A stretch of 64,000 nucleotides of DNA. It comes from an uncultured Pelagibacteraceae bacterium (GTDB lineage: Bacteria; Pseudomonadota; Alphaproteobacteria; Pelagibacterales; Pelagibacteraceae). The stretch is taken from contig CACGMR010000001.1 of the NCBI GenBank assembly GCA_902574215.1, positions 85,154-149,153 of the forward strand, read 5' to 3'. The position numbers and the translations under genes were made by a program. Under the pieces are notes generated by a model. The model did no database searches and had not been told where the DNA came from. It was given only the letters and a program-made list of their open reading frames with translations. The first letter of the stretch is position 1. Each line of letters opens with the position of its first letter. Of this stretch, positions 15,096 through 42,058 are shown in pieces.

Positions 15096-15496
15096 TGCTA
15101 TATTTTGCTTATGGAAGTAATCTTCATCACTTTCAGATGAAGCGAAGATGTAAAGATAGTGTTTTTTTAAAAAAAATAAATTTAAAAGATTTCAGATTAA
15201 CATTTAGAAGCAAGTACAGAGCTGCAGATATAGAGCCAAAAAAAAAATCTATTGTACCAGGTGCGTTATTTGAAATTTCTAAAAGTGATGAAAAAAAATT
15301 AGATGTTTATGAGGATTTTCCAAATTTATATAAAAAACATTACTTTTATTATTATGGAAAAAAAATTATGACATATACCATGGTAAGAAAAACACCATTT
15401 AAATTTCCAACAGAAAGATACCTAAATATAGTGAAACGAGGTTATAAAGATTGTAAATTAGATATTAAATTTCTTAAACAAGCATTAAAAATTTAA
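15095..15496 (+). CDS. Gamma-glutamylcyclotransferase-like protein
   Basis: YFAYGSNL motif at N-terminus, ~130 aa. Confidence 0.75.
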   Translation: MLYFAYGSNLHHFQMKRRCKDSVFLKKINLKDFRLTFRSKYRAADIEPKKKSIVPGALFEISKSDEKKLDVYEDFPNLYKKHYFYYYGKKIMTYTMVRKTPFKFPTERYLNIVKRGYKDCKLDIKFLKQALKI

Positions 15497-15538
15497 TATA
15501 TTGTTATTTACCAGTTTTAAAAAAAATAAGATTTAATT

Positions 15539-16132
15539 ATGCGTTATAAAAAAAATAATACTAAATATTCCTTAAAGAAGTCAATCAATCAACATCAGAC
15601 TGTATTTGAAAATTTACATAAAAATGAAAAAACCATAGTTGGTTGTATAAAATTAATTGTTCAACAATTAAGAAAAAAAGGAAAAATTTTAATTTGTGGT
15701 AATGGAGGATCTGCTGCAGATGCACAACATTTGGTTGCTGAGCTTTTAGTAAGATTGAAACCTAATAGTAATAGAGCTCCTTTGCCAGCTATATCTTTGG
15801 CTATGGACACCTCTACAATTACTGCCTGCTCAAATGATTTGGGTTATGACAATCTTTTCTCAAGGAATTTTAAAGCCTTACATAATAAAAATGATATTTT
15901 GATTGTAATTTCAACATCAGGAAATTCAAAAAATATTATTAATGTTCTTAAAGAGGCAAAAAAAAATAAAATAATAACCATAGGTTTTCTAGGTTCTGGT
16001 GGTGGTAAAGCTAAAAAATTTTGCCGTAAATCAATAATAGTCAAATCTAACAATGTAGCGCGTATACAAGAGGCGCATATTTTTTTAGGACATTACATTA
16101 TTGAACAAGTGGAAAATAACTTTTTTAATTAA
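15539..16132 (+). CDS. gmhA: Sedoheptulose 7-phosphate isomerase-like SIS protein
   Basis: GNGGSAADAQHLVAELLVR, ISTSGNSKNI, EAHIFLGHYI. Confidence 0.85.
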   Translation: MRYKKNNTKYSLKKSINQHQTVFENLHKNEKTIVGCIKLIVQQLRKKGKILICGNGGSAADAQHLVAELLVRLKPNSNRAPLPAISLAMDTSTITACSNDLGYDNLFSRNFKALHNKNDILIVISTSGNSKNIINVLKEAKKNKIITIGFLGSGGGKAKKFCRKSIIVKSNNVARIQEAHIFLGHYIIEQVENNFFN

Positions 16133-17304
16133 AAGGCAGAATTTAAAATATCACAAATTTTTTTTATTTTTTCTTTTTTTAAATTTGGATAATTGCCAAT
16201 GTAATAAGAAAAATCATGAATGTGTTGAACTTCTTTAAAATTTTTTAAATTAATTTTTGATATATATTTTTTTACATAGGGTTGTAATAGTTGGTTGCCA
16301 CCACCAGCCATTCCACGTCTAAACTCAATATTATTCTTATTCATTACGTTTTCGAGTTTATTTCTATTATAATTACTTTTTTTTCTAAGAATTAATGTAA
16401 AAGCGTAATTGCAACTACCTTTTGTTTTAAAGTCGGTTCTAAATTTAGAATTATCAATAAATTTTAAAAAAAAATCAAAATTTTTAATTCTTTTTTTATT
16501 ATTTGAGTTCAATTTTTTTAATTGACTAATACCTATCAAAGCTCCAATCTCGTTATTTCTCATATTAAAACCAGGAAGCATAAAAACAAATTTAGAATTT
16601 AACCTTTTATATTTAGATAAAATTTGACTTTGCCTTTTTTGGTTTCCAATTTCTCTCAGCATGCCGTGAGATCTTATCATTCTTGCATACTCATATATTT
16701 TTTTGTCATTAGTTGAAATCATGCCACCCTCTATTGTTGACATATGATGAGCATAATAAAATGAAAAATTTGACATTAAACCAAAAGTGCCTAATTTTTT
16801 TCCCTTAAATGTAGCTCCATGAGATTCACAAACATCTTCTATTATAGGTATATTTCTTTTTTTTAGTTCTTTAAGTAAATTTTCACTAAATGAATTAAAT
16901 CCCAGAACATGTGTTATAAAAACTGCTCTGGTTTTTTTTGAAATTTTTCTTAGCACTTGATCCTCATTCATTCCTAAATTTTTAGGATTTATATCAACAA
17001 AGATTGGTTTAAAATTATTTAATATAACTGAACTTATGTCAGAAACCCATGTGAGAGTGGGCACAATTACTTCACCAGTTCCATATATTTCTCTAAGTAT
17101 GAACATGGACAGAAAATTAGCTGATGAACCAGAATTTACAAAAGTACTATACTTTACACCAAGCCAATTTGACCAATTTTTCTCAAATTTTCTTACAAAT
17201 TTTGATTGAGTTAAAATAGGGTTGCTTGAATTTAATAATTTTTTAACACCAATAAAATCAGTTTTATCAAAATTATTGGTCATTAACTTGTGTTCAAATT
17301 TCAT
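16129..17304 (-). CDS. DegT/AHBA-family enzyme of the ColD/E1 (3-dehydratase) type
   Basis: DegT fold; internal-aldimine region reads SFYYAHHMSTIEGG, i.e. His where PLP-Lys normally sits, as in ColD/RfbH(E1). Confidence 0.75.
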   Translation of the reverse strand: MKFEHKLMTNNFDKTDFIGVKKLLNSSNPILTQSKFVRKFEKNWSNWLGVKYSTFVNSGSSANFLSMFILREIYGTGEVIVPTLTWVSDISSVILNNFKPIFVDINPKNLGMNEDQVLRKISKKTRAVFITHVLGFNSFSENLLKELKKRNIPIIEDVCESHGATFKGKKLGTFGLMSNFSFYYAHHMSTIEGGMISTNDKKIYEYARMIRSHGMLREIGNQKRQSQILSKYKRLNSKFVFMLPGFNMRNNEIGALIGISQLKKLNSNNKKRIKNFDFFLKFIDNSKFRTDFKTKGSCNYAFTLILRKKSNYNRNKLENVMNKNNIEFRRGMAGGGNQLLQPYVKKYISKINLKNFKEVQHIHDFSYYIGNYPNLKKEKIKKICDILNSAF

Positions 17305-17475
17305 AAAATATAAATTTAATATTTTTATATATACATATTTTAAAATATGTAACCAGCTAATAACATTGCATGTAAGTTATATTAAAGTAATATTGTATAT
17401 ATAAATTAAAAAATTTTACTTATTCCTCTTGTTCAATTATAAATATTAGCATAAACACCCATGAAATTCATTAAT

Positions 17476-17524
17476 GCCCTCGTGGTGAAATTGGTAGACA
17501 CAAAGGACTTAAAAGCCGAGGGAT
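17476..17524 (+). pseudogene. Truncated tRNA-Leu(TAA): 5' half plus 3' acceptor-strand remnant (left edge of island 1)
   Basis: gccctcgtggtgaaattggtagacacaaaggacttaaaa identical to the intact gene at 30415, then gccgaggga. Confidence 0.9.
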
Positions 17525-17625
17525 AGAAGTTAAAGTCAGTCCATAGTAGTCCAAGATAGTCTAAAACATCCTATAAAATCTCATAAGTTTAATTTGGCTT
17601 TCAATTAAGATTAGAAAATAAGACT
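17525..17625. repeat. Conserved island left-end sequence (copy at 29068-29168)
   Basis: gtcagtccatagtagtccaagatagtctaaaacatcctataaaatctcataagtttaat is nearly identical to the 29 kb copy; AGTCCATAGT/AGTCCAAGAT/AGTCTAAAAC/ATCCTATAAA phased at 10 bp. Confidence 0.85.
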
Positions 17626-17641
17626 TAATTAATTTGTGAAA

Positions 17642-17660
17642 ACCAGCACAAGACCAGCAC
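17642..17660. repeat. Paired direct repeat ACCAGCAC-AAG-ACCAGCAC, island 1 left
   Basis: Identical 19-mer recurs at 28917-28935. Confidence 0.9.
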
Positions 17661-17761
17661 ATAGAATGATAAATATTGTATAGTAAAATAATGAAAAAAC
17701 TTTTAGGGATCGTGATTCTTGGTTTATTCTTCAGTGGGAATTCTTTTAGGGAGGTAAGTTA

Positions 17762-18550
17762 ATGCATTTTCTTTACATTTTAGCGGCAATTCTGCCAGCT
17801 ATTTTAATTTTAATTTACTCTTATAAGCAAGACTCTTTTCCTGAACCACCAAAAATAGTTTTTAAAACTTTCCTTTTTGGTTGCGCAACAATTCTTGGAA
17901 TAGATTTAATAATATCAGAACTAGATAGTTTTAGTGATAACAATTTAAGCGGAGAAACATATAATTTTTTTGATACTTTTATAAGAGCGGCTTTTGTAGA
18001 GGAGTTTTTTAAATTTTGTGTAATTGTTTTTTATTGCACAAGAAAAACAGCTTTTGATGAACCAATGGATGGTTTAGTTTATGGTATAGCGGCATCTTTA
18101 GGTTTTGCAGCTTACGAGAATATCGGTTATGTACTTTATTTTTATAAAGAACCATCATTTGAAATTGCTATATTTAGAGCTTTTACGGCTGTTCCAATGC
18201 ATGCTCTTTGTGGAATTATGATGGGATTTTTAATTTCAAAATGTATTTTTGAAAAAAAAAATAATTACATGAATTTAATTTTAGCCCTTCTGATACCTGT
18301 TAGTATGCATGGGTTATATAATTTTAGTTTCACGAGTGAATTAATTTCACACCAATTAGCATATATGCTGTTGTTTATATTTACCATTATAACAATCATC
18401 ATGTTTAAAAGTTTAAAAAAGAAACAAAAAAAAGGTATAATATTCAATAAAAAATACTTTACGATTTCACTTTATAATTTTGTACAAGTTTCTACAGGGA
18501 TTTTAATTTTTTACTTAGGATTGAATTATTTGGTCTCAATTACAATTTAA
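17762..18550 (+). CDS. PrsW-family intramembrane metalloprotease
   Basis: VEEFFK (EExxK), DEPMDGLVYGIAASLGFAAYENIGY, RAFTAVPMHALCGIMMG; multiple TM segments. Confidence 0.88.
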   Translation: MHFLYILAAILPAILILIYSYKQDSFPEPPKIVFKTFLFGCATILGIDLIISELDSFSDNNLSGETYNFFDTFIRAAFVEEFFKFCVIVFYCTRKTAFDEPMDGLVYGIAASLGFAAYENIGYVLYFYKEPSFEIAIFRAFTAVPMHALCGIMMGFLISKCIFEKKNNYMNLILALLIPVSMHGLYNFSFTSELISHQLAYMLLFIFTIITIIMFKSLKKKQKKGIIFNKKYFTISLYNFVQVSTGILIFYLGLNYLVSITI

Positions 18551-19014
18551 TTTTTTTTATCAATAGAAATTTTTAATTTCATTATTTTGTTTTCTATAGA
18601 CTTAATAGAGTCAAAAATCTCTTTTTTTTCAATTGCACTTATCTCTTCACCTTTATCACTTTTTGGATCCTGAGCTTTTTTAATTACTTCAACAAGTTTT
18701 CCATGAAGAATAGTAAATTTTACTAAAACAGCGTCTAAATCATCATCATTATGTTGATCAATATTTGTAAAATTTGAAGACATTATGTACTCATGTGAGT
18801 TTAGTAGAGGAGGAGCTTTCTTCTTTTTAATACATGCTAAATCTAATTTAATGCTATCATTATGGTCTATTTGTTGAGGTTGATCTGGGTCGCTGCATTT
18901 TCTTAAAAAGGAAACACCTTTACCAATAGCTTCTTCGATTTCGTCTTCACTTAAAATTTTGATAACTTCAGCTACACCATTTTCTATAGATGAGATCTTT
19001 CTTATCTTTGCCAT
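18547..19014 (-). CDS. Hypothetical protein (155 aa)
   Basis: Intact ORF, convergent with PrsW gene; no family recognised. Confidence 0.6.
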   Translation of the reverse strand: MAKIRKISSIENGVAEVIKILSEDEIEEAIGKGVSFLRKCSDPDQPQQIDHNDSIKLDLACIKKKKAPPLLNSHEYIMSSNFTNIDQHNDDDLDAVLVKFTILHGKLVEVIKKAQDPKSDKGEEISAIEKKEIFDSIKSIENKIMKLKISIDKKN

Positions 19015-19128
19015 AAGATATTCTTATAATTAAATAAACATTTATAAAATCACTAATTTATATATTTGTCCAAAATTAATACTGAAATTACACAATAATA
19101 TTAAAAATTATAGTGTAATAGAATTGGT

Positions 19129-19236
19129 ATGAAATTAAACGCCAAAAAAGATAAAAAGATAATGAGAAGGGTATTTGTTATTACTTTGGCTATGATATTA
19201 GCTGCCACCATCATATCTACTGCTTACAGTCTGTAA
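19129..19236 (+). CDS. Possible 35-aa single-TM small protein (not in supplied ORF track)
   Basis: Translation MKLNAKKDKKIMRRVFVITLAMILAATIISTAYSL*; basic N-terminus + hydrophobic helix. Confidence 0.4.
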   Translation: MKLNAKKDKKIMRRVFVITLAMILAATIISTAYSL

Positions 19237-19293
19237 AATATTTTAAATTATAGGATTAAATGGGCTTTTTTTTTATTTCGTATACATTAGTGT

Positions 19294-20721
19294 TTGTATG
19301 TGAAATTTTTTAAACATTTATTCCTTATAATTTGTATTTTGTGCTCACAACAATTAGTTGCAAGTGAATGTGAAAACTTTGAGAATAAAGTTTTATCTAT
19401 TCCTTATCCAGAAAATGGAATGGTTACAGCAGGTGAACAGGCCAGAAACGATCTCGGGATATTTTTTCATCAGGAATATGATTATGACAAAGATGTAATT
19501 AAAATTAAGAGAGATAAAAATAATTACCCTATTTTAAAATTTTCATTTTTCGAAAAGAATTTAGAGCCAAGTAGCTCAATTATTAAAATTGATGAACAAG
19601 ATATTTCTAAATTAACCAAAAATGAAATTGAAAATCTTCTAGATAAAAAAGAGGTTAAAATTTCTACATTACAAGAATCATATGTTGTTAAAGCAGATAA
19701 ATACGATCTATACCCTTTTGAATTAGAGTTCTTTAACATTACTGCAATCGACGAGATAAAAACAAAAGAAGGTGAGTTTACTCTAGATTATAACTTTCAA
19801 GTATCTCATGAAAGGCCTGATTGGATTGAGGCTGGTAGAGAAATTGGAAATTTTACATATTGTTCATTGGAGAAAATTCATGAAAGCAATAAAATTTTTT
19901 CCCCTATTGGAGATTATGAATATTTAGTGCAAATAGGTTATGATCAAGACAAATCTTTTGCTGCCTATGAGCAAAGTTATTATGCAGATTTAGACAAAAC
20001 ATATTCTCTTGCCACTCGATCAGGTGTTGCAAGAATAAAGTCAGATTTTAATTTAAAAAAATTTCCTTTTGATGAACAGGTGTTGATAATTGAGCTATTT
20101 CCACCTTATGGAATAGTTTATAATGAGGACAACTATTACCCCAAACCATTCATCACATCATTTGTACCAAGAAATAATGTTTATTTAGATTTAATAAAAT
20201 ACAAAAATGAAAACTTTTTAAAAGAATGGACTGTTAAAAAAACAGAAATTGACAACATTTTGTATAAAACTAAATCAGCTTCACTGTTTGATAGAAGTAA
20301 AATTAAAGAAGCTATAGAAGATAGAATTCAAATAAAAATTACTGTTGAGAGAAATATTAACTATTTTATTTTTAAAATAATAATTCCAGTATTTTTAATT
20401 TTATCAATTGCGTGGTCTGTAATGTGGATACCACCAAATCAAGTTGAGTCCAGACTTACAACATCGATTGTAGCATTACTTGCTTTAATTGCTTATAACT
20501 TTGTCTTCAATGAAGACATCCCAAAATTATCTTATCTAACAAGCTTGGATAGATACATTTTATTATCTTATTTATTCTGTGCTATTCCAACTTTTCTAAC
20601 TATCTATTTTAGTAGATTGACCAAAAAAGATTATAAAATTGCGATAGCTATCAATAAAAAATCAAGACTATTTGGAATTATTATTTATTTAGTTTCTATA
20701 ATTATTATTTTCACAATTTAA
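19294..20721 (+). CDS. Bacterial pentameric ligand-gated ion channel (Cys-loop superfamily) with extra N-terminal domain
   Basis: FPFDEQVLIIEL (conserved FPFDxQ), M1 IIIPVFLILSIAWSVMW, M2/M3 LTTSIVALLALIAYNFVFNEDIPKLSYLTSLDRYILLSYLF closely follow the GLIC pattern. Confidence 0.87.
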   Translation: MYVKFFKHLFLIICILCSQQLVASECENFENKVLSIPYPENGMVTAGEQARNDLGIFFHQEYDYDKDVIKIKRDKNNYPILKFSFFEKNLEPSSSIIKIDEQDISKLTKNEIENLLDKKEVKISTLQESYVVKADKYDLYPFELEFFNITAIDEIKTKEGEFTLDYNFQVSHERPDWIEAGREIGNFTYCSLEKIHESNKIFSPIGDYEYLVQIGYDQDKSFAAYEQSYYADLDKTYSLATRSGVARIKSDFNLKKFPFDEQVLIIELFPPYGIVYNEDNYYPKPFITSFVPRNNVYLDLIKYKNENFLKEWTVKKTEIDNILYKTKSASLFDRSKIKEAIEDRIQIKITVERNINYFIFKIIIPVFLILSIAWSVMWIPPNQVESRLTTSIVALLALIAYNFVFNEDIPKLSYLTSLDRYILLSYLFCAIPTFLTIYFSRLTKKDYKIAIAINKKSRLFGIIIYLVSIIIIFTI

Positions 20722-21578
20722 CCAGTTAAACCATCACGTTTAGCTTTATAACACTTATCTTTGATATTTTCTTTAAATTGAATATTTTTATTAGCATTAA
20801 TAATTTTCTCAGGATTATTATATCTATCGTGAACAAAAAATTGATTATCATGAATAATAAAATAATCTGTTGGGTACGAATCTGATGTAAAGGGTTTTGT
20901 TGACATCACCTTAAGAGGATTTTCATCATATAAAACTAAAAGTTCCTGTTTTGTGAATTCCCTTGTGTAAGTTTTGATAAACTTATAATTTGTTAAATAA
21001 GCTCTATTAATATCATTTTCATTATTTAAAATAATTGTAAAGTAGAATATTTCGTTTGTATTTTTACAAACTAATAGCAATTTTTTATTAATTTTTGGTT
21101 TACTAAAATACTCTGAGGTTTGGTAAATTTTTCCTGTCCATGATTTTTGAATATATGGAGAAATTATAAAATCTTTTTCCTCAGCAGAAAAATTAAAATC
21201 AAATAAATCAAATAAGTTTTCCGAATATTTGCTAGCTTTTTTCCCTAATTTTGAGATAGTTACACCGTGGTTTAATCCAATTTCCACATTAGATTTATTT
21301 AAAGCCTGATCTAAATGATAATTGTGTGTGTCTTTTGTGACTTTATTGAAAATAATATCTTGATCTAGCTTTGTCTTAATTTTTTCTATACTTTTAGTTG
21401 GTGTATTCATTGCAGCTTCATCAGCAACATTTTTTCCACCCTTAAATAAATCGTCAAAAAAAGAAGGTATACCTTCAATAAATTCTTTAAACAATCTTAC
21501 TTTACCTGCGTGCGCATTACCAAAAACACATGTTGTAAGAAATAATATAATTAAAAAAAAATTAATTTTTTTTTTCAT
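20718..21578 (-). CDS. Secreted hypothetical protein (286 aa)
   Basis: N-terminal signal peptide MKKKINFFLIILFLTTCVFGNAHA; no family recognised. Confidence 0.6.
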   Translation of the reverse strand: MKKKINFFLIILFLTTCVFGNAHAGKVRLFKEFIEGIPSFFDDLFKGGKNVADEAAMNTPTKSIEKIKTKLDQDIIFNKVTKDTHNYHLDQALNKSNVEIGLNHGVTISKLGKKASKYSENLFDLFDFNFSAEEKDFIISPYIQKSWTGKIYQTSEYFSKPKINKKLLLVCKNTNEIFYFTIILNNENDINRAYLTNYKFIKTYTREFTKQELLVLYDENPLKVMSTKPFTSDSYPTDYFIIHDNQFFVHDRYNNPEKIINANKNIQFKENIKDKCYKAKRDGLTG

Positions 21579-21710
21579 CCAAAATTCTAATTAAAATTGG
21601 ACAAATTATATCTATATTTTTAAGTGTTTGTCCAAAAAAAACTATTCAATTACACAAGATTATCTAACTAAAAAATGTATTTTGAATTCATGAAAACAAA
21701 GGAGAAAACA

Positions 21711-21962
21711 ATGAAAAAACTAACTTTAATACCAATTGTATTTACTACATTTTTTTTAATACAATTTGCAATACCAACACAGTCTGTAGCACAAATAACT
21801 TGTTCAACAGATATTTTTGGAAATACACGTTGTGTAGATCGAGATTCAGGTAGTAGCTCTACTACAAGCACTGATATATTTGGAAACGATAATACAACTT
21901 TTAGTGATGGCAGTACAATGCAATGTAGAACTGATATTTTTGGAAACTATGTTTGTAATTAA
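21711..21962 (+). CDS. Small secreted TDIFGN-repeat protein
   Basis: Start moved to 21711 (preceded by aaaggag RBS); MKKLTLIPIVFTTFFLIQFAIPTQSVAQ signal peptide; three TDIFGN motifs. Confidence 0.7.
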   Translation: MKKLTLIPIVFTTFFLIQFAIPTQSVAQITCSTDIFGNTRCVDRDSGSSSTTSTDIFGNDNTTFSDGSTMQCRTDIFGNYVCN

Positions 21963-21971
21963 TAAAAAAAA

Positions 21972-22000
21972 TAAATCTCCCTATTATTTAGGGAGATTTA
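21972..22000. terminator. Strong hairpin downstream of TDIFGN protein
   Basis: TAAATCTCCCTA ... TAGGGAGATTTA inverted repeat. Confidence 0.65.
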
Positions 22001-22007
22001 AATAATC

Positions 22008-22193
22008 ATGAAAAGAAGAAAAAAAACTGAATTTTACTTATTAAGAAAAAGAAGTCTTTCTGAAGGTGACTTATTTATTACCGATTATATTCGAACAAAA
22101 CAAAGATTAGAAATTTTAGAAGAGCGGTTAACCCAATTGAATAACCTTATTAATGATAAGGAAATATTAGTAGATGATGACAAAAAAAATTAA
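22008..22193 (+). CDS. Hypothetical 61-aa charged protein upstream of GrpE/Hsp70 cassette
   Basis: Small intact ORF, co-oriented with the cassette. Confidence 0.45.
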   Translation: MKRRKKTEFYLLRKRSLSEGDLFITDYIRTKQRLEILEERLTQLNNLINDKEILVDDDKKN

Positions 22194-22250
22194 AACTTTA
22201 ATGATAGACAACACTTCCTATAATATGATTAACTATCTACTGGTAAAAAA

Positions 22251-22967
22251 ATGAGTCTATTACAATATTTATTCTTAGGGTTAATTATAATAGCTTTAAT
22301 TTTAGTAATTATATTATTCCTAAAACTTTACCAAAAAATTAAAAGCTCTGACAAAGATAGTATAAATTTAATTCAATTTCCTAAAGAAACCGAAAATAAG
22401 CTAGATCACTTTATAAATTTTGCAAAAAATGATCACCATAATTTAGTTAATGAATTTAAAAAAACTCAAAAATATTCAGATACATTAATTAAAGAACTTG
22501 ATAATAAAATTTCTCCATTTGAAAAAGTAGCTAGAGAAAAAAATGACGAACTCAAAGAGTATAAGAAAGGATATGAGTACTCAAGATATAAGGCACTTTT
22601 GGATGGTATCATTGAAACAATAATATTTATTGAAAATGCAGAAAGCAAAATAAATCCAAATGACGAAATTGCTAAATCTTATTTTCAAAGTACGAAAGAT
22701 AAATTACTAATTATATTAAATAATTCTGGCATCGAACCTTTTGTTCCAGAACTCAATATTCAAAGTTTAGATCACCAAGGTTGTGAGGTAGATATAAATA
22801 CTGAGCCAACAGACAAAAAAGAAAAAAATAATTTAATACACTCTGTGGTTGCCAAAGGTTACAAGCTAAATCTTAAAGACGGTACAGTTAATTACATAAA
22901 AAAAGCATTAGTTAAAGTTTATGAATTTGATAATCAAAATGTTGATAATGAAAAAAAAAATATATAA
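22251..22967 (+). CDS. Membrane-anchored GrpE-like nucleotide exchange factor
   Basis: N-terminal TM, coiled coil, then GrpE-like end: SGIEPFVPELNIQSLDHQGCEVD...IHSVVAKGYKLN...VNYIKKALVKVYEFD; directly upstream of Hsp70. Confidence 0.65.
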   Translation: MSLLQYLFLGLIIIALILVIILFLKLYQKIKSSDKDSINLIQFPKETENKLDHFINFAKNDHHNLVNEFKKTQKYSDTLIKELDNKISPFEKVAREKNDELKEYKKGYEYSRYKALLDGIIETIIFIENAESKINPNDEIAKSYFQSTKDKLLIILNNSGIEPFVPELNIQSLDHQGCEVDINTEPTDKKEKNNLIHSVVAKGYKLNLKDGTVNYIKKALVKVYEFDNQNVDNEKKNI

Positions 22968-22984
22968 GTTTTTAATTAATATTT

Positions 22985-24526
22985 ATGAGTAAAATTATTG
23001 GAATAGATTTAGGTACAACCTTTTCAGCTATAGCTGAGCTAGATGATTTAGGTAATCCAGAGATGTTATCTGACCCTGAAAATAATAATAGAATTACTCG
23101 ATCGGCAGTTTACATAGGGAGAGATAAAGCAATAGTTGGAGACAAAGCTGTTGATGCTGCGGTTACCAATAGAAATAGCACAGTGTTTGAAGTCAAAAGC
23201 CAAATGGAAAACAACGTAGTTTGGTCAAAAAAAGATGGAGAGTGGATAGAACAAGATGCAAAAAAAACAAGCAAGGGCTATACTCCTTCTCAAATATCCT
23301 CAATTATTTTATCTAAACTTAAGGATTACACCTCTGGTGTAAAAAAAGCTGTTGTTACTGTTCCTGCAATGTTTGCTGATGCAGCACGAGATGCAACTTT
23401 AGATGCAGCTAAACTGGCAAAATTAGATGTAGAACTAATTAATGAACCAACCGCTGCTGTACTACATTATGCAAATTTACCTGGCTCATCTATAAATGGA
23501 AGAGTTCTTATATTTGATTTGGGAGGTGGTACATTTGATATAACGATAGCAAATGTTAAAGGAAAGAAGGTCGATGTTATTACATCTGTTGGTGATAAGC
23601 ATCTTGGTGGCAGACGTTTTGATGAAGAAATAATTAATTTAATAGATAAGAAATATAAGAAAGCAAAAGGAAAAGGACTAGTTAAACCTTTAGAAGATGA
23701 GAGTCTTTTTACTATTGCAGAGAGAATAAAGAAAATATTATCCACCAAAGATAAAGCATCGGAAATTATAGAAGGCCCTAAAGGCCCTCAAAAAATTGAT
23801 ATATCTAGAAGTGAATTTGAGAATTCAATAGATACTTATATTGAAAAAATAAAAATGCTCATGGAAGAGGCACTAGAGAGTAAAGACTTAAAGGCCAACA
23901 ACATTTCTCAGACTTTATTAGTTGGTGGCAGTACAAGAATGCCTATTATAAATAAAGTTATTACAAAAATTATGAAAAAAGCTCCTGTTAAAGGAGTTAA
24001 TGTAGATGAGGCTGTAGCATGTGGAGCTGCTATATATGCTGGGCTTCAAAATAAAGGAAATCTAAATTCAGCACAAAAAAAATCGCTATCAAATGTAGAA
24101 TTAAATGATGTTTGTAATTATTACTTGGGCACATTAGCCATTATATATGACAAGGAAAGAGATATGGGGATTCAAATTAATGATATTGTGATTCCAAGAG
24201 ATACAAAACTTCCTTGCTCAATCACAAAAACTTATACAGTAGTATCAGATGGTCAGAAGGGAATTGATTGTTCTGTAACTCAAAGCGAGGGTGAAGAAAA
24301 AGATAAAGAATTCGTTAATATATTGTCAAATGAAATTCTTGATCTTTCCAAAAATGCGAAAGCAGGCGACCCAATTGAGGTTACATATTCTTATGATAAT
24401 AGTGGAAAGATCCATTGTATTTTCGAAGATAAAAAATCCAAAAAAAAACATGAGATTAGTTTAAAGCCAGCAGGCGCTAAGGATTTAAAAGAATTAAAAG
24501 AAAATTTAGATTTTGATATAGAATAA
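22985..24526 (+). CDS. Hsp70/DnaK-like chaperone, short form (513 aa)
   Basis: GIDLGTTFSAIAE, VVTVPAMFADAARDAT, NEPTAAVLHYA, IFDLGGGTFDITI, VGGSTRMPII; C-terminus too short for a full helical lid. Confidence 0.92.
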   Translation: MSKIIGIDLGTTFSAIAELDDLGNPEMLSDPENNNRITRSAVYIGRDKAIVGDKAVDAAVTNRNSTVFEVKSQMENNVVWSKKDGEWIEQDAKKTSKGYTPSQISSIILSKLKDYTSGVKKAVVTVPAMFADAARDATLDAAKLAKLDVELINEPTAAVLHYANLPGSSINGRVLIFDLGGGTFDITIANVKGKKVDVITSVGDKHLGGRRFDEEIINLIDKKYKKAKGKGLVKPLEDESLFTIAERIKKILSTKDKASEIIEGPKGPQKIDISRSEFENSIDTYIEKIKMLMEEALESKDLKANNISQTLLVGGSTRMPIINKVITKIMKKAPVKGVNVDEAVACGAAIYAGLQNKGNLNSAQKKSLSNVELNDVCNYYLGTLAIIYDKERDMGIQINDIVIPRDTKLPCSITKTYTVVSDGQKGIDCSVTQSEGEEKDKEFVNILSNEILDLSKNAKAGDPIEVTYSYDNSGKIHCIFEDKKSKKKHEISLKPAGAKDLKELKENLDFDIE

Positions 24527-24529
24527 TTT

Positions 24530-25753
24530 ATGGAAGGTATAGTTATTTGGATTGTTATAATAGCGGGGTGGTGGGTAATAAAGTCTATTTTTTCTTCAGC
24601 ATTTGGTGGTGGAGGAAGTTTAAGTAATGCAGATCGTCAAGAACTTTACGATAAATTAAAACTGCAGCTTAAAGTATCTGAGGAAATTCCACCAAAAGAA
24701 AGAGGTTTACCAGATCAAAAATGCTTAGCAGTTAAAGTTAAGGGACTTTTTGGCCATCCTACAGAAAATAAAACTAAAATTTTTTTAACAATTCATGATA
24801 ATACGGAGCTAGGTGATGATGAATTTGGGCCACCAGTACTTTCAGCCCACCCATCTTTTGCAGAAAAAAATAATAGAGTTTTTAGCCTTACAACAGTTTG
24901 GGAAACATCTTCAGACACATATTTTCCCGACTGGTATAATTTAATATATATTCCAAAAGAACTTATTCTTGCACCTTATAAGGGAAGAAGAAATCTAAAA
25001 TTTAATTTTACAGCATGTGATACGGACGCTGAAGTTCATCATAGTGCACATGACGACCTAGAAAAAATCAAATATAGCGCTTCTACTATTTACAAATTTA
25101 CATCCAAAGAAATTGGATATCTAGAAGAATTTAAAAATAGAGATAAGGTAGAAGATCTGACAATAAATCTAGCGATGAACATGGCTGCTTCTGATGGTCA
25201 TTTAGATCAAAAGGAATTAAATGTTATTAAAGATTGGGCTAAAAGTTTAACTCTTGAGCTTGATGAAGATAAAGCTTCAGAAAAGAAAAAGCATTTTGCA
25301 AAACTTATTAAGGAAACTTACAAAATAGCACAAACTAAGAAAGCATCTATTTCTAAACTTGTTTCTGAATTTAATGATAAAGCAAGTAAAAGCCAAAAAT
25401 ACCTAGCAATAGAACTAATGTTAAATGTTGCTAGCTCAGACTCAAAATTAGCAAAAGAAGAAGAGCAATTTGTAAATAAGATTGCCAAAAGTATTGGAAT
25501 TGATCTTCAAACTTTTAAAGAAATGAAAAATAAAGTCATTGCAAATGTCGATAAAATTGATTTTGCTGAAAAACCCTCTGAGGCAAGTTTTGGTATAACT
25601 GATGATATGGATGATGCTGAGAAAAGAAAAATTCTTCGAAAAGAATACACTAAGTGGAATGGTCAAACTAATCATAAAGATCCAAAGAAAAAGAAAAGAG
25701 CTAAAGAGATGGTTAAAATAATTGCCGACTTAAGGAAGCAATACAGCCATTAA
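24530..25753 (+). CDS. Membrane-anchored TerB-like protein with degenerate J-like C-terminus
   Basis: N-terminal TM + Gly-rich stretch; MNMAASDGHLDQKELNVI and MLNVASSDSKLAKEEEQFV TerB-type acidic motifs; C-term LRKEYTKWNGQTNHKDPKKKKRAKEMVKIIADLRKQY resembles a J-domain. Confidence 0.65.
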   Translation: MEGIVIWIVIIAGWWVIKSIFSSAFGGGGSLSNADRQELYDKLKLQLKVSEEIPPKERGLPDQKCLAVKVKGLFGHPTENKTKIFLTIHDNTELGDDEFGPPVLSAHPSFAEKNNRVFSLTTVWETSSDTYFPDWYNLIYIPKELILAPYKGRRNLKFNFTACDTDAEVHHSAHDDLEKIKYSASTIYKFTSKEIGYLEEFKNRDKVEDLTINLAMNMAASDGHLDQKELNVIKDWAKSLTLELDEDKASEKKKHFAKLIKETYKIAQTKKASISKLVSEFNDKASKSQKYLAIELMLNVASSDSKLAKEEEQFVNKIAKSIGIDLQTFKEMKNKVIANVDKIDFAEKPSEASFGITDDMDDAEKRKILRKEYTKWNGQTNHKDPKKKKRAKEMVKIIADLRKQYSH

Positions 25754-26904
25754 TGGATTTTTTAGATAAGTTTAAATATCATAAAGATGATCCATCTGAA
25801 TTTGGAATTGATTTAAAAGAATTCAAAAAAAAAACTAGTGAATTAGATAATAGTCACCTATCTAACTTATTAACAAATTCAGTAAGGGTAGATAGGGAAA
25901 TATTACCTAAAGTTGGTAAGGCGATAGATGTTGTATTTAAGAGAATTAAAATTGAAAATGTATTTAATTTTTTTATAACTCCAGACAATAACCAAGCAAA
26001 TGCTTCATGTAGTTTAATGTCTTCAGCATCAAGGCCTGATATTATTTTAACTTCTAGATTAATTGAATTATTATCATTAGAGGAACTCCAATTTGTAATA
26101 GGGCACGAAGTTGCACATTATATCTATCAACACGCACTGTATCCAAATTTCAATAATGTGGACGATAGAAATTTAAAATTAAATATTTTAAATCTAAGTA
26201 GAGCTGCAGAAATAAGTGCTGACAGAATTGGTTTTTTATCATGTGCTAATCTTGAAGATTCGTTACGAGCTAATTTTAAGCTAGCATCAGGACTAAGTGA
26301 TAAATATTTTAATTTTAAACCCTCCACATATCTTGATCAACTTAGAGATTTAGAGGATTTAGGTAAAAGTTCTCACGAGTTATGGAGCACACATCCAAGT
26401 TTCTTAATAAGGATGCAGTCTTTAATCTGGTTTTCTATGACAAAAGAGTATCATGAGTTCTTTGATAAAAAAGTTAAAGGAACATATGATTTAAAAGAAA
26501 TAGACAAGAAACTTGATTTAAAAATCAAAAAAATTACTGGAGATGAATTAGAAAAATCAAATACAGATATATATGAAAGAGCACTTATCTGGGGTTCATT
26601 GAATATTTATTTAAGTGATAAAAAATTCACTAAAATAGAACAAGAAGAATTTGCTAAAAGATTTGGAGAAAAATCTAAAAAGGCTATCTCGTTATTAAAG
26701 GTTTCTAATGCTAGAGACATACTAGATCAAAAGATAGACGAGTCATTTAATGATGCTGCCAAATTATTAAAAACAGATAAAAATAAACTAGTAGAAGAAC
26801 TTAAGTTAGTTGGCAAGGAGACAGGTGGAGATAAAATGAAGAAATTAAAAATTCTTGGAAAGTTGTTAAATATTTTAGGTATTAAAAAACCCGTTAATTT
26901 TTGA
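25753..26904 (+). CDS. M48-type metallopeptidase
   Basis: FVIGHEVAHYIYQH (HExxH) and AAEISADRIGF (ExxxD). Confidence 0.85.
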   Translation: MDFLDKFKYHKDDPSEFGIDLKEFKKKTSELDNSHLSNLLTNSVRVDREILPKVGKAIDVVFKRIKIENVFNFFITPDNNQANASCSLMSSASRPDIILTSRLIELLSLEELQFVIGHEVAHYIYQHALYPNFNNVDDRNLKLNILNLSRAAEISADRIGFLSCANLEDSLRANFKLASGLSDKYFNFKPSTYLDQLRDLEDLGKSSHELWSTHPSFLIRMQSLIWFSMTKEYHEFFDKKVKGTYDLKEIDKKLDLKIKKITGDELEKSNTDIYERALIWGSLNIYLSDKKFTKIEQEEFAKRFGEKSKKAISLLKVSNARDILDQKIDESFNDAAKLLKTDKNKLVEELKLVGKETGGDKMKKLKILGKLLNILGIKKPVNF

Positions 26905-26941
26905 TTTTATAAATTATATAAAAAAATAAAAATATTATTAT

Positions 26942-27106
26942 TTATTTATTACCCACATTTAAAATTAAGAGACCTATACCTCCAAAAACATATGGAGTGA
27001 AAGTAGATAACGGTCCTAAAAAATAAGTAAGATTTATTTGTGCAAAGTTTCCAAGTAAAAAATCTGCAACACCAATAATTATTAATATATATCCTAAGAT
27101 TTGCAT
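26942..27106 (-). CDS. Small hydrophobic protein, 54 aa (not in supplied ORF track)
   Basis: Reverse-strand translation MQILGYILIIIGVADFLLGNFAQINLTYFLGPLSTFTPYVFGGIGLLILNVGNK*; two TM-like helices; more protein-like than the overlapping track ORF 26949..27140. Confidence 0.55.
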   Translation of the reverse strand: MQILGYILIIIGVADFLLGNFAQINLTYFLGPLSTFTPYVFGGIGLLILNVGNK

Positions 27107-27216
27107 GAGAAAGAATTATATATTTATTAGCTAAAAACAATTAAAAAATTTTCACTTAAAAAGTGTATTAAAATTTAAATTAGATTGAATTATCAATATA
27201 TTTCTGAGAATATAAT

Positions 27217-28509
27217 TTGGACATTATGAAGTTGTTTATTTTATTGTTTTTACAATTTTTATTTTTCCTAAATTTAAATGCTAATGAAATTAATTTAAAC
27301 GATCCATTCTATAAGCTAGGTTGGAAAAATTTAGAAAACCCAGAAATTTCTAGAATTCAAATTCCCAATGCGAATGCTAGCATAGAAATCATCAAGTCTG
27401 AGATCTACTTAAATACTAAACAAGATATAAAAAATTTTGAAGAATATTTATATAACCAAGAATATAACATTGATGATATTGATGAAAAATTAATTATTTC
27501 TGACAATGAGCAATACTATAAAATTGAAGCTAAATATTATGATGAAGGTTATATTACAACAGACAGATTTAAAAATTTTAAATCATCAGATTTACTCGAG
27601 ACAATTAACAAAAATAAATCAGAATCAATTGATAAATTTTCTTGGGCTTTAGAGCCAACCATTTCTGAAAATATGATTTCAACTTATGGATATAAGGTGA
27701 AGTGGAAAGATGGAGATATAACTTACTGGTATTATGGAAATATACTAGGCAGAAATGGTTACGTTGAATTAAAAATGGTTCTTTTTGGTGATGAATCAGA
27801 TGGAGATGATTTCTTTAATTATTATGGAGATTTAATTAATCAGATTTCTTCTACTGTTGAATTTAATGATCAATATAAATATTCAGATTTTACTCAAGAT
27901 GACTATCTATCATCTTATACTCTAACAAATATAATTGACGGAAGCTGGGGGGAAGGTACAGCTACTGATCTTACAAATATTATTGCCAATTGTTTAATTA
28001 CAACTGAAGCTTTAAAAAAAGCAGGTATAGCTGAGTCAGATTATCCCAGGTTTGCAGGTAAGGTAATTAATTTTTATATTTCAGATGTTAGAAATGAGAT
28101 CATTGATTTATCTATAGATGATGAGGTGAATGTCATATCAGGAATGTATGGCATTGAAGATAAGCAAAATTTTCAAAAACTTAACATATCTCATAATAAT
28201 CCAAATACTTTTGATCTTAGTTACACCAATATAATAGAAGTAGTTGGTGATAAAAAGACAGACAAGTCAAAATATGAATATAAAAATAAATTGGTTATTA
28301 AAGATGGTATACCTAAGCTTATGTTTGCAAAGATTGATCAAACAGGTTTATCATTTAATAAATGGAATTTAACACTAGGTTGTAAGAGCGAAGACTTTAC
28401 AGAAGAAGAAATAGCATCAGCTAAATTTGTTAAGTCTAAATCAATATCAGGCATGGATCCAAAAAAGCTAGAAGAGATAATTAAAAAACTTAAAGAAAGG
28501 AGCGAATAG
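27217..28509 (+). CDS. Secreted hypothetical protein (430 aa)
   Basis: Signal peptide LFILLFLQFLFFLNLNANE; no family recognised. Confidence 0.65.
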   Translation: MDIMKLFILLFLQFLFFLNLNANEINLNDPFYKLGWKNLENPEISRIQIPNANASIEIIKSEIYLNTKQDIKNFEEYLYNQEYNIDDIDEKLIISDNEQYYKIEAKYYDEGYITTDRFKNFKSSDLLETINKNKSESIDKFSWALEPTISENMISTYGYKVKWKDGDITYWYYGNILGRNGYVELKMVLFGDESDGDDFFNYYGDLINQISSTVEFNDQYKYSDFTQDDYLSSYTLTNIIDGSWGEGTATDLTNIIANCLITTEALKKAGIAESDYPRFAGKVINFYISDVRNEIIDLSIDDEVNVISGMYGIEDKQNFQKLNISHNNPNTFDLSYTNIIEVVGDKKTDKSKYEYKNKLVIKDGIPKLMFAKIDQTGLSFNKWNLTLGCKSEDFTEEEIASAKFVKSKSISGMDPKKLEEIIKKLKERSE

Positions 28510-28512
28510 ATT

Positions 28513-28875
28513 ATGAGTGTAAATATTCTCAATATCAATGATTTTAATAATGAGATAAGAAATTATATTCCTTTTCACGAAGTCAGTAGCCCACCTAGAA
28601 TAGGTGATGTAGAGGGACAAGATTTCGAATGTGGTTGTGGAGATATTCACATTATGAATTTTGATCAACATTATTTCATAGCTGATGGAGGAATGTTTAA
28701 AGCTGTTTTTTTGTCTCCAGCTTGTGGTTTTTTAAATGCATTAAAATTAAAAAAAATGTTTTCAAGTGGAATTGAGAATCTGTGTAGTACTAAATTTTTA
28801 GCTGAAAAACCTAATTATGGATTTCAAAGTTATCCAGATATAGCAGGCTCTATTAACAAGTATTTTGGACGGTAA
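28513..28875 (+). CDS. Hypothetical protein (120 aa), CGCG motif
   Basis: Intact ORF following 27217..28509; FECGCGDIHIMNFDQHYFIADGG. Confidence 0.55.
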   Translation: MSVNILNINDFNNEIRNYIPFHEVSSPPRIGDVEGQDFECGCGDIHIMNFDQHYFIADGGMFKAVFLSPACGFLNALKLKKMFSSGIENLCSTKFLAEKPNYGFQSYPDIAGSINKYFGR

Positions 28876-28897
28876 ATAATTTTTCAATGAAAAAACT

Positions 28898-28960
28898 TAT
28901 AGGACTTCATCGGATAACCAGCACAAGACCAGCACATAGAGAGATAAAATAAAAAAAATT
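28898..28960. repeat. Conserved island right-end sequence (copy at 30293-30355)
   Basis: tataggacttYatSggaYaacYagYacMagacYagYac...agataaaataaaaaaaatttacttatt shared by both copies. Confidence 0.8.
28917..28935. repeat. Paired direct repeat ACCAGCAC-AAG-ACCAGCAC, island 1 right
   Basis: Identical to 17642-17660. Confidence 0.9.
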
Positions 28961-29019
28961 TACTTATTAACCTTGTTCAATTATAAATATTAGCATAAAC
29001 ACTCATGAAATTCATTAAT

Positions 29020-29067
29020 GCCCTCGTGGTGAAATTGGTAGACACAAAGGACTTAAAAGCCGAGGGA
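29020..29067 (+). pseudogene. Truncated tRNA-Leu(TAA), second copy (island 1/island 2 junction)
   Basis: Same 5' half and same gccgaggga remnant as 17476..17524. Confidence 0.9.
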
Positions 29068-29184
29068 TTCACATTTTAGTCAGTCCATAGTAGTCCAAGG
29101 TAGTCTAAACATCCTATAAAATCTCATAAGTTTAATTAAGCTTTCAAATAAGATTAGAAAATAAAGCTTATTTAATTTGTGCAG

Positions 29185-29203
29185 ACTAGTACTAAACTAG
29201 TAC
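29185..29203. repeat. Paired direct repeat ACTAGTAC-TAA-ACTAGTAC, island 2 left
   Basis: 11-bp spacing; 8-mers match 30312-30330. Confidence 0.9.
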
Positions 29204-29233
29204 CTGGATAGATAATATTATAAGCTTTTATCA

Positions 29234-29419
29234 ATGAAAATTAAAAAAGGTATTTTTAGAATTTATATAGTTTTAAGTGTTATGTGGTTTTGTTTTTTTT
29301 TCATTGGTTTTATCGATCAAGACTGGAACTATAATATTGAAAAAGAATTATTAATAATTTCCCTTATACCACTGCCATTATATTTTATTCTTAAATGGAT
29401 AGCTAAAGGTTTTGAATAA
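29234..29419 (+). CDS. Small two-TM membrane protein (61 aa)
   Basis: Hydrophobic IYIVLSVMWFCFFFIGFI and LIISLIPLPLYFILKWI. Confidence 0.5.
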   Translation: MKIKKGIFRIYIVLSVMWFCFFFIGFIDQDWNYNIEKELLIISLIPLPLYFILKWIAKGFE

Positions 29420-30285
29420 TGAAAAAACTTTTAGGAATGATATTGATCAGTTTGTTATGTTTTAATTTTTCTATTGCAGATAACAATGAAGAGCTGAAGT
29501 TAATTGAAGATTATAAAGAAAAATTATTGGATAGTGGAAGTAAACGGGATTTAAAACAAGTTGAAAAAATTTGTTCTAAATACCAAGATGATAAAGCAAA
29601 AAATATAATTGCTGACAGTGAAATCTTGTCATTCCTTTGCTCTGGAGGTGTAAGTATGCTTATTACCAGCGAGTATAATGATATGTTATTAGATAAAAGC
29701 ATATCACATATTGATACGTGCAATGAATATAAGAAAATTCCAATAGAGGTGGGTGAGTACGACCAAATGAGTTTGAATACTCATATAGGTATAATGAATT
29801 ATTGTGAGACTGTTGAGTTAAGAGCAAATTTTAAGCAGGATGCGAAACATAATCTAATTAAAGATTTAGATTTAGAAAAACTTAACTTTAACTTCTTATC
29901 AAATAAATATTATTCATTATCCATACCTGAAAAGGACATTACTAAAAAAGCCTCTTGTTTTCTTAATCTTAAAGAAGAAAAAAGTTTAGACTACAAAGAT
30001 ATAAAGGAAAGATGTGGGGTTGAAAGCGTTACATATCAAGAGGAAAGTCCCGCAGGTTCAGAAGGTGAGCTTGCATCATATGAATTAATAAGTGAAAGTG
30101 ATTTAACACGTAATTGGATTGTAATATTAGATTACTTTTATGCAGATGCTAATGAAGATGGTTATATGGATTTAGTTATAAGATTTAAAAATGATGGTAG
30201 CTATTCTATGGCAGTTCAAACCATGACTACAGTTATAACATCTTTAAGTGCAAATAATTATAAAATACTTAATTATAATAAATAG
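29419..30285 (+). CDS. Secreted hypothetical protein (288 aa)
   Basis: Signal peptide MKKLLGMILISLLCFNFSIA; no family recognised. Confidence 0.6.
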   Translation: MKKLLGMILISLLCFNFSIADNNEELKLIEDYKEKLLDSGSKRDLKQVEKICSKYQDDKAKNIIADSEILSFLCSGGVSMLITSEYNDMLLDKSISHIDTCNEYKKIPIEVGEYDQMSLNTHIGIMNYCETVELRANFKQDAKHNLIKDLDLEKLNFNFLSNKYYSLSIPEKDITKKASCFLNLKEEKSLDYKDIKERCGVESVTYQEESPAGSEGELASYELISESDLTRNWIVILDYFYADANEDGYMDLVIRFKNDGSYSMAVQTMTTVITSLSANNYKILNYNK

Positions 30286-30311
30286 ATTTAAATATAGGAC
30301 TTTATGGGACA

Positions 30312-30330
30312 ACTAGTACCAGACTAGTAC
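30312..30330. repeat. Paired direct repeat ACTAGTAC-CAG-ACTAGTAC, island 2 right
   Basis: 11-bp spacing; 8-mers match 29185-29203. Confidence 0.9.
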
Positions 30331-30414
30331 CTAGGAAGATAAAATAAAAAAAATTTACTTATTCCTCTTGTTCAATTATAAATATTAGCATAAACACTCA
30401 TGAAATTCATTAAT

Positions 30415-34725: not shown

Positions 34726-35516
34726 AATATAAAAATTTTTTAATTACTGGAGCTGCTAGTGGACTAGGAAAATGCATGACTCAACAATTGCTTGATGCTG
34801 GCAAAAAAGTAATTGCACTCGATATAAATGATTTAAATATTGAGGAATTTAATCAAAATGAAAATTTAAAATTTATTAAATTTGATTTAAAAAATTATTC
34901 TGAAATAGATAATATAATTGATAACTTAAATGATATTAAAAATGTAGATTGTCTTGTAAATTCTGCTGGTTATGAGGCTGCAGGTTTTATTGACGAACTT
35001 CCAATAGATGAAATAATAAGAAATTTTAACGTTAATACAATTGCTCCTATCAAACTGTCACAAAAATTATTACCGATACTAAAAAAAAATCAAGGATGTA
35101 TTGTTAATCTTATTTCGGCAATGGCGACTATCGCTGTACCAGGTAGATTGCCATATTGTATGAGTAAATCAGCCTTACAGATGTTCTCAAATATATTAAG
35201 ATGTGAATACAAATATCATAATATCAATGTATTAACCGTGTACCCTGAAGTCATGGAAACACCTTTTTGGCAAAAAATTGTATATTTTGGAAGAATTAAA
35301 TCAGAGGCAATAAACGATCCTAGAAAAAAAAGAGATCCAAACATAGTTGCAACTGAAGTAATTAAATCAATTTCAAAACAAAAAAGTTTTTTTTGGCGTT
35401 TCTCTTTTACAAATTATTTTGCAATTTTTTACACAATTTTTACACAAATTGGAGATAAAATTGTAGATGTTATATGTAAAATAAAGGACTCAAACATTAC
35501 TCCAAAAAATCATTAA
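34722..35516 (+). CDS. Short-chain dehydrogenase/reductase
   Basis: ITGAASGLGKCM, NSAGYEAAG, YCMSKSALQM. Confidence 0.88.
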   Translation: MKYKNFLITGAASGLGKCMTQQLLDAGKKVIALDINDLNIEEFNQNENLKFIKFDLKNYSEIDNIIDNLNDIKNVDCLVNSAGYEAAGFIDELPIDEIIRNFNVNTIAPIKLSQKLLPILKKNQGCIVNLISAMATIAVPGRLPYCMSKSALQMFSNILRCEYKYHNINVLTVYPEVMETPFWQKIVYFGRIKSEAINDPRKKRDPNIVATEVIKSISKQKSFFWRFSFTNYFAIFYTIFTQIGDKIVDVICKIKDSNITPKNH

Positions 35517-41997: not shown

Positions 41998-42058
41998 TAA
42001 ATAATTGTTTTATTACTTATTGGATAAACTTTTAATAAAAGTATAAAAGAATAAAATA

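What the first reader, a model, noticed from the sequence alone, without database searches (positions are those of the whole stretch)
19294..20721. Pentameric ligand-gated ion channel in a marine mobile island, with an extra PDZ-like N-terminal domain
The C-terminal part matches the Cys-loop/GLIC family (FPFDEQ; M1-M3 as in GLIC). About 130 extra residues precede the ligand-binding domain and contain SSSIIKIDEQDISKLTKNEIENLLDKKEVKISTL, which resembles a PDZ 'GD.I..ING..v' strand/helix. A periplasmic PDZ-like sensor fused to a pLGIC would be unusual.
Basis: partly seen in the sequence, partly recalled or inferred. Interest (0 to 1): 0.72.

Follow-up and report, generated by a model that had tools for sequence, protein, structure and literature searches.

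The report
PDZ-capped neurotransmitter-receptor-like channel in SAR11
A tiny ocean bacterium (SAR11 group) encodes a relative of animal nerve-receptor ion channels that carries an extra peptide-binding-type (PDZ) domain on its outside and sits beside genes for a membrane protease and a putative regulator, which gives a testable lead on what such bacterial channels do.

Summary
The ORF at 19294-20721 (+) is an intact pentameric ligand-gated ion channel (pLGIC): FPFD Pro-loop, M1 proline, four TM helices, acidic ring before M2. Residues ~49-140 fold with high confidence (pLDDT 94-97) and superpose on PDZ domains of periplasmic proteases (Z 9.0, 1.8 A over 78 residues). A profile of 63 homologous N-domains finds PDZ domains by sequence (E 5e-10). 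It is not a one-off: 30 of 397 sampled Pelagibacteraceae genomes carry PDZ-pLGICs, and one more is in another alphaproteobacterial family. I found no report of a PDZ-pLGIC; described bacterial pLGIC extensions are PBP-I, Cache/MCP-N and DeCLIC's jelly rolls. New here is a conserved neighbourhood: a CII/CP76-like small protein, a PrsW-family intramembrane protease (often overlapping the channel gene), and in some loci a Tat-exported amine oxidase plus a second, PDZ-less pLGIC that keeps an aromatic loop B. The window has the reduced form (PrsW, CII-like, PDZ-pLGIC). Best model: a cation-selective channel whose PDZ domains bind a periplasmic peptide or partner and modulate gating, in one module with PrsW. 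Fold and linkage are shown computationally; function is inferred. Mobility is not shown.

The parts
19294..20721 (+). PDZ-pLGIC gene, 475 aa (TTG start; GTG at 19300 is the likelier start by comparison with relatives)
   Evidence: ORF; PF02932 E 1.2e-7; PDB pLGIC matches; alignment of starts
19294..19365 (+). signal peptide, residues 1-24
   Evidence: hydrophobic N-terminus, conserved position in relatives; helix in model; cleavage site inferred
19438..19713 (+). PDZ domain, residues ~49-140; carboxylate-loop-like D53-L54-G55-I56
   Evidence: pLDDT 94-97; Z 9.0, rmsd 1.8 A over 78 residues to CtpA PDZ; profile to PDZ E 4.8e-10; G55 97% conserved
19717..20355 (+). pLGIC extracellular/periplasmic beta-sandwich domain, residues ~142-354
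   Evidence: model; GABA-A ECD match Z 17.7, 2.9 A over 205 residues
20062..20073 (+). Pro-loop motif FPFD, residues 257-260
   Evidence: invariant in 63 relatives
20356..20718 (+). transmembrane domain M1-M4, residues ~355-475
   Evidence: model helices 355-376, 386-407, 417-445, 447-474; PF02932; DeCLIC/sTeLIC/ELIC alignments
20446..20514 (+). M2 pore helix with E385 just before it, L396 (9'), A400 (13'), F403 (16')
   Evidence: residue counts in 63 relatives: E/D385 63/63, L396, A400, F403 63/63; ELIC alignment
17762..18550 (+). PrsW-family glutamic intramembrane protease, 262 aa
   Evidence: PF13367 E 4e-36; E80, E81, H147, H183 invariant in 42 linked PrsW; linkage
18547..19014 (-). CII/CP76-like small protein, 155 aa, divergent from the channel gene; putative regulator
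   Evidence: PF06892 E 0.0025, below cut-off; next to PDZ-pLGIC and divergent in 37 of 37 immediately adjacent cases
20718..21578 (-). exported 286-aa protein of unknown family, also next to the channel in L031
   Evidence: gene orders; no convincing family match
27217..28509 (+). DUF2167 protein; relatives lie directly upstream of PrsW in L031, L034, L058
   Evidence: PF09935 E 4e-12; gene orders; link in the window itself is weak because it is 6.5 kb away

Best explanation
The gene encodes one subunit of a (probably homo-)pentameric, probably cation-selective channel of the pLGIC family in the inner membrane. Each subunit carries a PDZ domain of the bacterial periplasmic-protease type in front of its ligand-binding domain, so five PDZ domains would crown the channel in the periplasm. 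The PDZ domains most likely bind a protein or peptide end (for example the C-terminus of an envelope protein or of a channel partner) and bias gating or place the channel next to that partner. The channel works as one module with the neighbouring PrsW-family intramembrane protease, which is a candidate for processing the channel or a partner, and with a CII-like protein, a candidate regulator. Shown here (computationally): pLGIC homology and fold, PDZ fold, gene linkage. Inferred: pentamer, ion selectivity, peptide binding, coupling to gating, the roles of PrsW and of the CII-like protein.
For: pLGIC: PF02932, PDB sequence matches, Foldseek top hits DeCLIC/ELIC/GABA-A, GABA-A ECD Z 17.7 at 2.9 A, invariant FPFD/R353/P365, acidic 385 and L396/A400/F403 in 63 of 63. 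PDZ; also with window-like N-domains only, hhalign to four protease PDZ domains gives 65.8% (E 5.7e-5) against at most 0.9% for 20 column shuffles and 0.2% for the reversed profile. Groove: G55 of the carboxylate-binding loop is the most conserved residue of the domain, 97%. No conserved loop B or C aromatics in the PDZ-pLGICs, which is compatible with sensing moved to another site. Module: PrsW within 2.7 kb of 16 of 30 and within 10 kb of 23 of 30 PDZ-pLGICs in 397 genomes, genome co-occurrence Fisher p ~1e-20 (not corrected for phylogeny); PrsW and channel genes directly consecutive in 22 loci, 20 of them overlapping.
Against: No experiment. No PDZ ligand is known, and the GD motif of canonical PDZ domains is SS in this protein. 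The CII-like match is below Pfam's cut-off. In the large clade L035-L069 the PrsW gene is not adjacent (6.5-7.6 kb away or not found), so the module is not universal. A shared position in a variable region could explain part of the linkage. Lack of conserved binding-site aromatics could equally mean diversified small-molecule ligands.
Confidence: 0.5

Rival explanations
1. Amine-receptor subunit: PDZ-pLGICs are accessory subunits that co-assemble with, or evolved from partners of, the PDZ-less pLGICs encoded beside a Tat-exported flavin amine oxidase. The short subunit binds an amine in its loop-B site, the oxidase removes or makes the ligand, and the PDZ subunit modulates or anchors the heteropentamer. 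In lineages such as the window's, the PDZ subunit works alone.
For: Eight loci hold both channel types; all 8 also hold the amine oxidase, PrsW and a CII-like gene. Oxidase PF01593 E 1.7e-44, with twin-arginine leaders. Short channels keep 'FPFDxQxLxxELWSE[FYW]P' in loop B and match ELIC over their whole length. ELIC is opened by primary amines and lies beside a putative amino-acid decarboxylase gene (PMC3119659).
Against: Most PDZ-pLGIC loci have no short channel or oxidase; the window's genome (69% complete) shows neither.
Confidence: 0.22
2. The PDZ domain is an anchor or protease handle: it presents the channel to PrsW or to periplasmic proteases, or clusters it in the envelope, and has no part in gating.
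For: PDZ of the RseP/DegP/CtpA type, a domain type that in proteases serves substrate handling; gene overlap with an intramembrane protease.
Against: PrsW is equally linked to PDZ-less pLGICs (6 of 7 short-only loci), so PDZ and PrsW are not tied to each other one to one.
Confidence: 0.2
3. The extra region is not a PDZ domain but another small beta domain that the model forced into a PDZ-like shape, or a decayed relic without function.
For: The window sequence alone gives no Pfam PDZ hit; GD motif absent; Foldseek E-values are only ~0.02.
Against: All 50 structural matches listed are PDZ-bearing chains, Z up to 9.0 at 1.8 A; relatives score as PDZ by sequence, best E 2.9e-7 in 21 of 63 members; shuffled controls fail; the domain is as conserved as the ECD, 0.40 against 0.375 mean majority frequency.
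Confidence: 0.05

Closest known systems
DeCLIC (Desulfofustis pLGIC with N-terminal domains; PMC9897478, PMC12664993)
   Same: bacterial pLGIC with an extra periplasmic domain before the ECD; best Foldseek match of the full model; similar TM sequence
   Different: DeCLIC's extension is two jelly-roll lobes making up about half of the receptor mass; here it is a single ~92-residue PDZ domain
ELIC (Erwinia) and GLIC (Gloeobacter)
   Same: core ECD plus four-helix TMD, FPFD Pro-loop, 16' Phe as in ELIC
   Different: no N-terminal domain; ELIC has the amine site with Glu131/Phe133 in loop B, not conserved in the PDZ-pLGICs
[quoted passage not shown]
   Same: sensor-type domain fused in front of the pLGIC core
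   Different: none of the described fusions is a PDZ domain; the text has no mention of PDZ
PDZ domains of S41/Ctp, DegS/DegP and RseP proteases
   Same: fold and bacterial-type carboxylate-loop position
   Different: in those proteins PDZ is joined to a protease, not to an ion channel
PrsW intramembrane protease of sigma-W signalling
   Same: PF13367 match and invariant Glu-Glu and His residues
   Different: below NCBIfam's PrsW equivalog cut-off (136.9 against 225 bits); no sigma factor or anti-sigma gene recognised next to it; linked to a channel

Membership tests
pentameric ligand-gated ion channels (Pro-loop receptors) | profile match to the transmembrane domain | tested here: met
   PF02932 32.7 bits against cut-off 28.1
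pentameric ligand-gated ion channels (Pro-loop receptors) | Pro-loop FPFD, pre-M1 Arg, M1 Pro | tested here: met
   F257-D260, R353, P365 invariant in 63 sequences
pentameric ligand-gated ion channels (Pro-loop receptors) | beta-sandwich ECD plus four TM helices | tested here: met
   model and PDB comparison
pentameric ligand-gated ion channels (Pro-loop receptors) | pentamer that conducts ions on a stimulus | not testable with these tools
   no complex prediction or electrophysiology available
PDZ domain | PDZ fold | tested here: met
   Z 9.0, 1.8 A, 78 residues to CtpA; DegS, DegP, HtrA PDZ also matched
PDZ domain | sequence homology at profile level | tested here: met
   63-member profile to PDZ E 4.8e-10; 21 of 63 members hit PF00595; the window sequence alone does not
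PDZ domain | carboxylate-binding loop (X-phi-G-phi) | tested here: met
   D53-L54-G55-I56, G55 in 61 of 63
PDZ domain | GD-x-I-x-x-I/V-N-G motif | tested here: inconclusive
   clear in paralogues such as L022 and L025; SSSIIKIDEQ in the window
PDZ domain | binding of C-terminal peptides | not testable with these tools
   needs a binding assay
DeCLIC-type N-terminal domain | two jelly-roll lobes | tested here: not met
   single PDZ domain against NTD1/NTD2 jelly rolls (PMC9897478)
PBP-I, Cache or MCP-N fused pLGIC | match of the N-domain to those families | tested here: not met
   no such Pfam hit among the best families of 63 N-domains; PDZ instead
PrsW intramembrane protease (window 17762-18550) | Glu-Glu and His catalytic residues in a PF13367 protein | tested here: met
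   PF13367 E 4e-36; E80, E81, H147, H183 invariant in 42

The most novel reading that the evidence does not exclude
SAR11 and neighbours have a previously undescribed envelope signalling module: PDZ-capped pLGICs that sense peptide or protein ends (or an amine, via PDZ-less partner subunits and an exported amine oxidase) and are set or switched by a PrsW intramembrane protease and a CII-like regulator, that is, an ion channel joined to regulated intramembrane proteolysis.
Probability: 0.3. Interest if true: 0.88.

Novelty: new variant of a known kind. Interest (0 to 1): 0.68.

Why it matters
The natural role and ligands of bacterial pLGICs are still largely unknown, and only one N-terminal extension (DeCLIC) has been characterised structurally. 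A recurrent PDZ-pLGIC in one of the most abundant groups of marine bacteria, with conserved partner genes, turns an open question into concrete tests: which peptide the PDZ domain binds, whether PrsW cuts or activates the channel, and whether the short partner channel beside the amine oxidase is gated by the oxidase's substrate. It also shows a new way in which an animal-type receptor core was combined with a protein-interaction domain.

Tried and rejected
Viral origin: two scans of 2.9 million viral contigs found no relative, so nothing ties it to phages. Chance PDZ motif: rejected by relatives, model and shuffled controls. DeCLIC-like jelly rolls, PBP-I, Cache, MCP-N as the extra domain: not supported. 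Pfam PDZ on the window protein alone: no hit, reported as such. PrsW linkage within 10 kb: 7 of the 23 cases lie 6.5-7.6 kb away with a larger PrsW variant and may be ordinary synteny, so the firmer number is 16 of 30 within 2.7 kb. Single origin of the PDZ fusion: the channel-only tree (PDZ cut off) needs 2 label changes against a shuffled mean of 16.5; the Pelagibacteraceae PDZ-pLGICs form one supported group, but the deep long branches do not decide L111, L093 and L105. Mobile element: length variation at the site seen, integrases and repeats not followed up. Literature searches for PDZ with pLGIC, PrsW with ligand-gated channels, SAR11 with ligand-gated channels gave nothing relevant; the library holds open-access papers only, so absence there is weak evidence.

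Full report
Observation. The ORF 19294-20721 (+) is open, 475 codons, starting TTG. Close relatives begin at the codon that corresponds to the GTG at 19300, so that may be the real start. The protein has a signal peptide (to about residue 24), a region of about 118 residues, a pLGIC ligand-binding domain and four TM helices. Pfam finds PF02932 at 1.2e-7; by sequence the best solved structures are ELIC (2.3e-15) and DeCLIC (4.5e-14). The genome is a 1.0 Mb, 69% complete assembly; its relatives are labelled Pelagibacteraceae. Only this one pLGIC was found in it.

The channel core. In 63 relatives FPFD (257-260), R353, P365 and many TM residues are invariant. Residue 385, just before M2, is Glu or Asp in 63 of 63; L396, A400 and F403 are invariant. 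By alignment to ELIC, with the 16' Phe fixed by PDB entry titles (F247S = 16'), these are the 9', 13' and 16' positions. An acidic ring at the inner end of M2 predicts cation selectivity (general knowledge of pLGICs; not measured). The model (mean pLDDT 85) matches DeCLIC, ELIC and GABA-A chains, and its ECD superposes on a GABA-A ECD at 2.9 A over 205 residues.

The N-terminal domain. In the full-length model residues 49-140 have pLDDT 94-97; predicted alone the domain keeps the same strands. The fifty entries listed in the structural second look are PDZ-bearing: CtpA/CtpB/Prc, DegS, DegP, HtrA (best Z 9.0, 1.8 A, 78 residues). Foldseek gives the same families, though with E-values of about 0.02. 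By sequence, a profile of the 63 N-domains finds PDZ domains of the site-2 protease aq_1964 (4.8e-10) and of DegP/HtrA, and 21 of 63 members hit Pfam PDZ, best 2.9e-7. Divergent paralogues carry the textbook motif, for example VNYGDKIISVNG in L025 and VTPGDEIISING in L022. The full-length profile also picked up an S41-type, a DegP-type and an RseP-type protein in other genomes through the PDZ part alone. The window sequence by itself gives no Pfam PDZ hit. A test restricted to 28 window-like N-domains against four protease PDZ domains still gives 65.8% probability, E 5.7e-5, against at most 0.9% in 20 shuffles and 0.2% for the reversed profile. The PDZ assignment is therefore solid for the family, and for this protein through its family and model. 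The most conserved residue of the domain is G55 (61 of 63), in the position of the carboxylate-binding loop.

Distribution. 30 of 397 sampled genomes of the same family carry a PDZ-pLGIC; a further 5 hits are to PDZ-less short channels linked to the same neighbours (two of these in genomes that also have a PDZ-pLGIC) and 10 are more distant pLGICs. The genome collection gave 78 loci, nearly all Pelagibacteraceae, with one record labelled SAR86 and one labelled Alphaproteobacteria. In 289 genomes of the class, one genome of another family (L111) has a 461-aa pLGIC with a PDZ-like N-domain (LEVGDRILAVDQ) directly after a CII-like gene. A tree built from the channel part only groups the PDZ channels (2 label changes against 16.5 in shuffles), so one origin of the fusion is plausible but not proven.

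Neighbourhood. Directly left of the channel in the window lie a PrsW-family protease gene (17762-18550 +, PF13367 4e-36) and a small divergent gene (18547-19014 -, CP76/CII-like, 0.0025, below cut-off). Across the loci: of 63 loci with PDZ-pLGICs only, 51 have the CII-like gene and 27 PrsW within 3 kb; all 8 loci with both PDZ and short pLGICs have PrsW, an amine oxidase and a CII-like gene; of 7 short-only loci 6 have PrsW and 4 the oxidase. Where the CII-like gene immediately precedes a PDZ-pLGIC it is divergent in 37 of 37. PrsW and channel genes are directly consecutive on the same strand in 22 loci, and 20 pairs overlap, as in translationally coupled operons. In the 397-genome sample PrsW is within 2.7 kb of 16 of 30 PDZ-pLGICs (7 more at 6.5-7.6 kb), and presence in genomes is associated (Fisher p about 1e-20, no correction for phylogeny). 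The putative catalytic residues E80, E81, H147, H183 are invariant in 42 linked PrsW proteins. The CII-like family also occurs in some genomes where I did not check for a channel.

Amine oxidase branch. The oxidase (PF01593, 1.7e-44) has twin-arginine leaders, so it is probably periplasmic. The short channel next to it keeps ELWSE[FYW]P in loop B, where ELIC has Glu131 and Phe133 (PMC3119659). ELIC is opened by primary amines and lies beside a putative amino-acid decarboxylase gene (same paper). An amine ligand for the short channel is a reasonable hypothesis. The PDZ channels show no conserved residues in loops B or C. The window's genome shows no short channel or such oxidase, but it is incomplete.

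Mechanism. Most likely a cation channel with five PDZ domains at its periplasmic top that bind a peptide or protein end and adjust gating or location, regulated together with PrsW. Identity (pLGIC plus PDZ fold) I hold at about 0.93; the mechanism at about 0.4; the combined statement at 0.5. Rivals are an accessory subunit of an amine receptor, and a pure anchor or protease handle.

Comparison with the literature. [quoted passage not shown] the 2025 DeCLIC paper says DeCLIC is the only pLGIC with a partially characterised NTD (PMC12664993). Pelagibacter pLGICs were noted in 2016, in a study that cut off the termini on purpose (PMC4795631). I found no mention of a PDZ-pLGIC or of a PrsW link in the held open-access papers. 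Hence 'new variant of a known kind'.

Island. The distance between the CinA-like gene and NAD kinase is 15.4 kb here, 2.5-3.4 kb in G976, G078 and G971, 9.1 kb in G312, up to 34 kb in G238, and about 1-5 kb in another family of the order. The site next to tRNA-Leu is therefore variable. 'Island' is fair; 'mobile' is not shown.

Noticed in passing
L074, L080, L082, L088, L089, L091, L101, L103 (e.g. L103:1823-7517): Operon-like cluster PrsW, PDZ-pLGIC, DUF805, Tat-exported amine oxidase, PDZ-less pLGIC, CII-like gene: an amine oxidase beside neurotransmitter-receptor-type channels in SAR11.
   Followed up: partly
L075:5692-8804, L077:5146-8249, L079:5146-8263: Two different PDZ-pLGIC genes back to back (overlapping in L075), suggesting heteromeric channels.
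   Followed up: no
window 19369-19371 and 19861-19863 (C26 and C190): A cysteine just after the signal peptide and one in the ECD tend to be present or absent together in relatives (both in 38 of 63, Fisher p 0.055); possible disulphide tying the N-terminal helix to the ECD.
   Followed up: partly
window 22985-26904: Hsp70-like, TerB-like and M48-like protease genes in a row next to the channel region; conserved partners not examined.
   Followed up: no
window 15100-30400 against relatives: Variable-length region between CinA-like gene and tRNA-Leu/NAD kinase (2.5-34 kb in relatives), a hot spot for gene content.
   Followed up: partly
window 33430-45300: Second low-GC stretch with surface-polysaccharide type genes (aminotransferase, epimerases, radical SAM, nucleotidyltransferase), GC down to 20%.
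   Followed up: no
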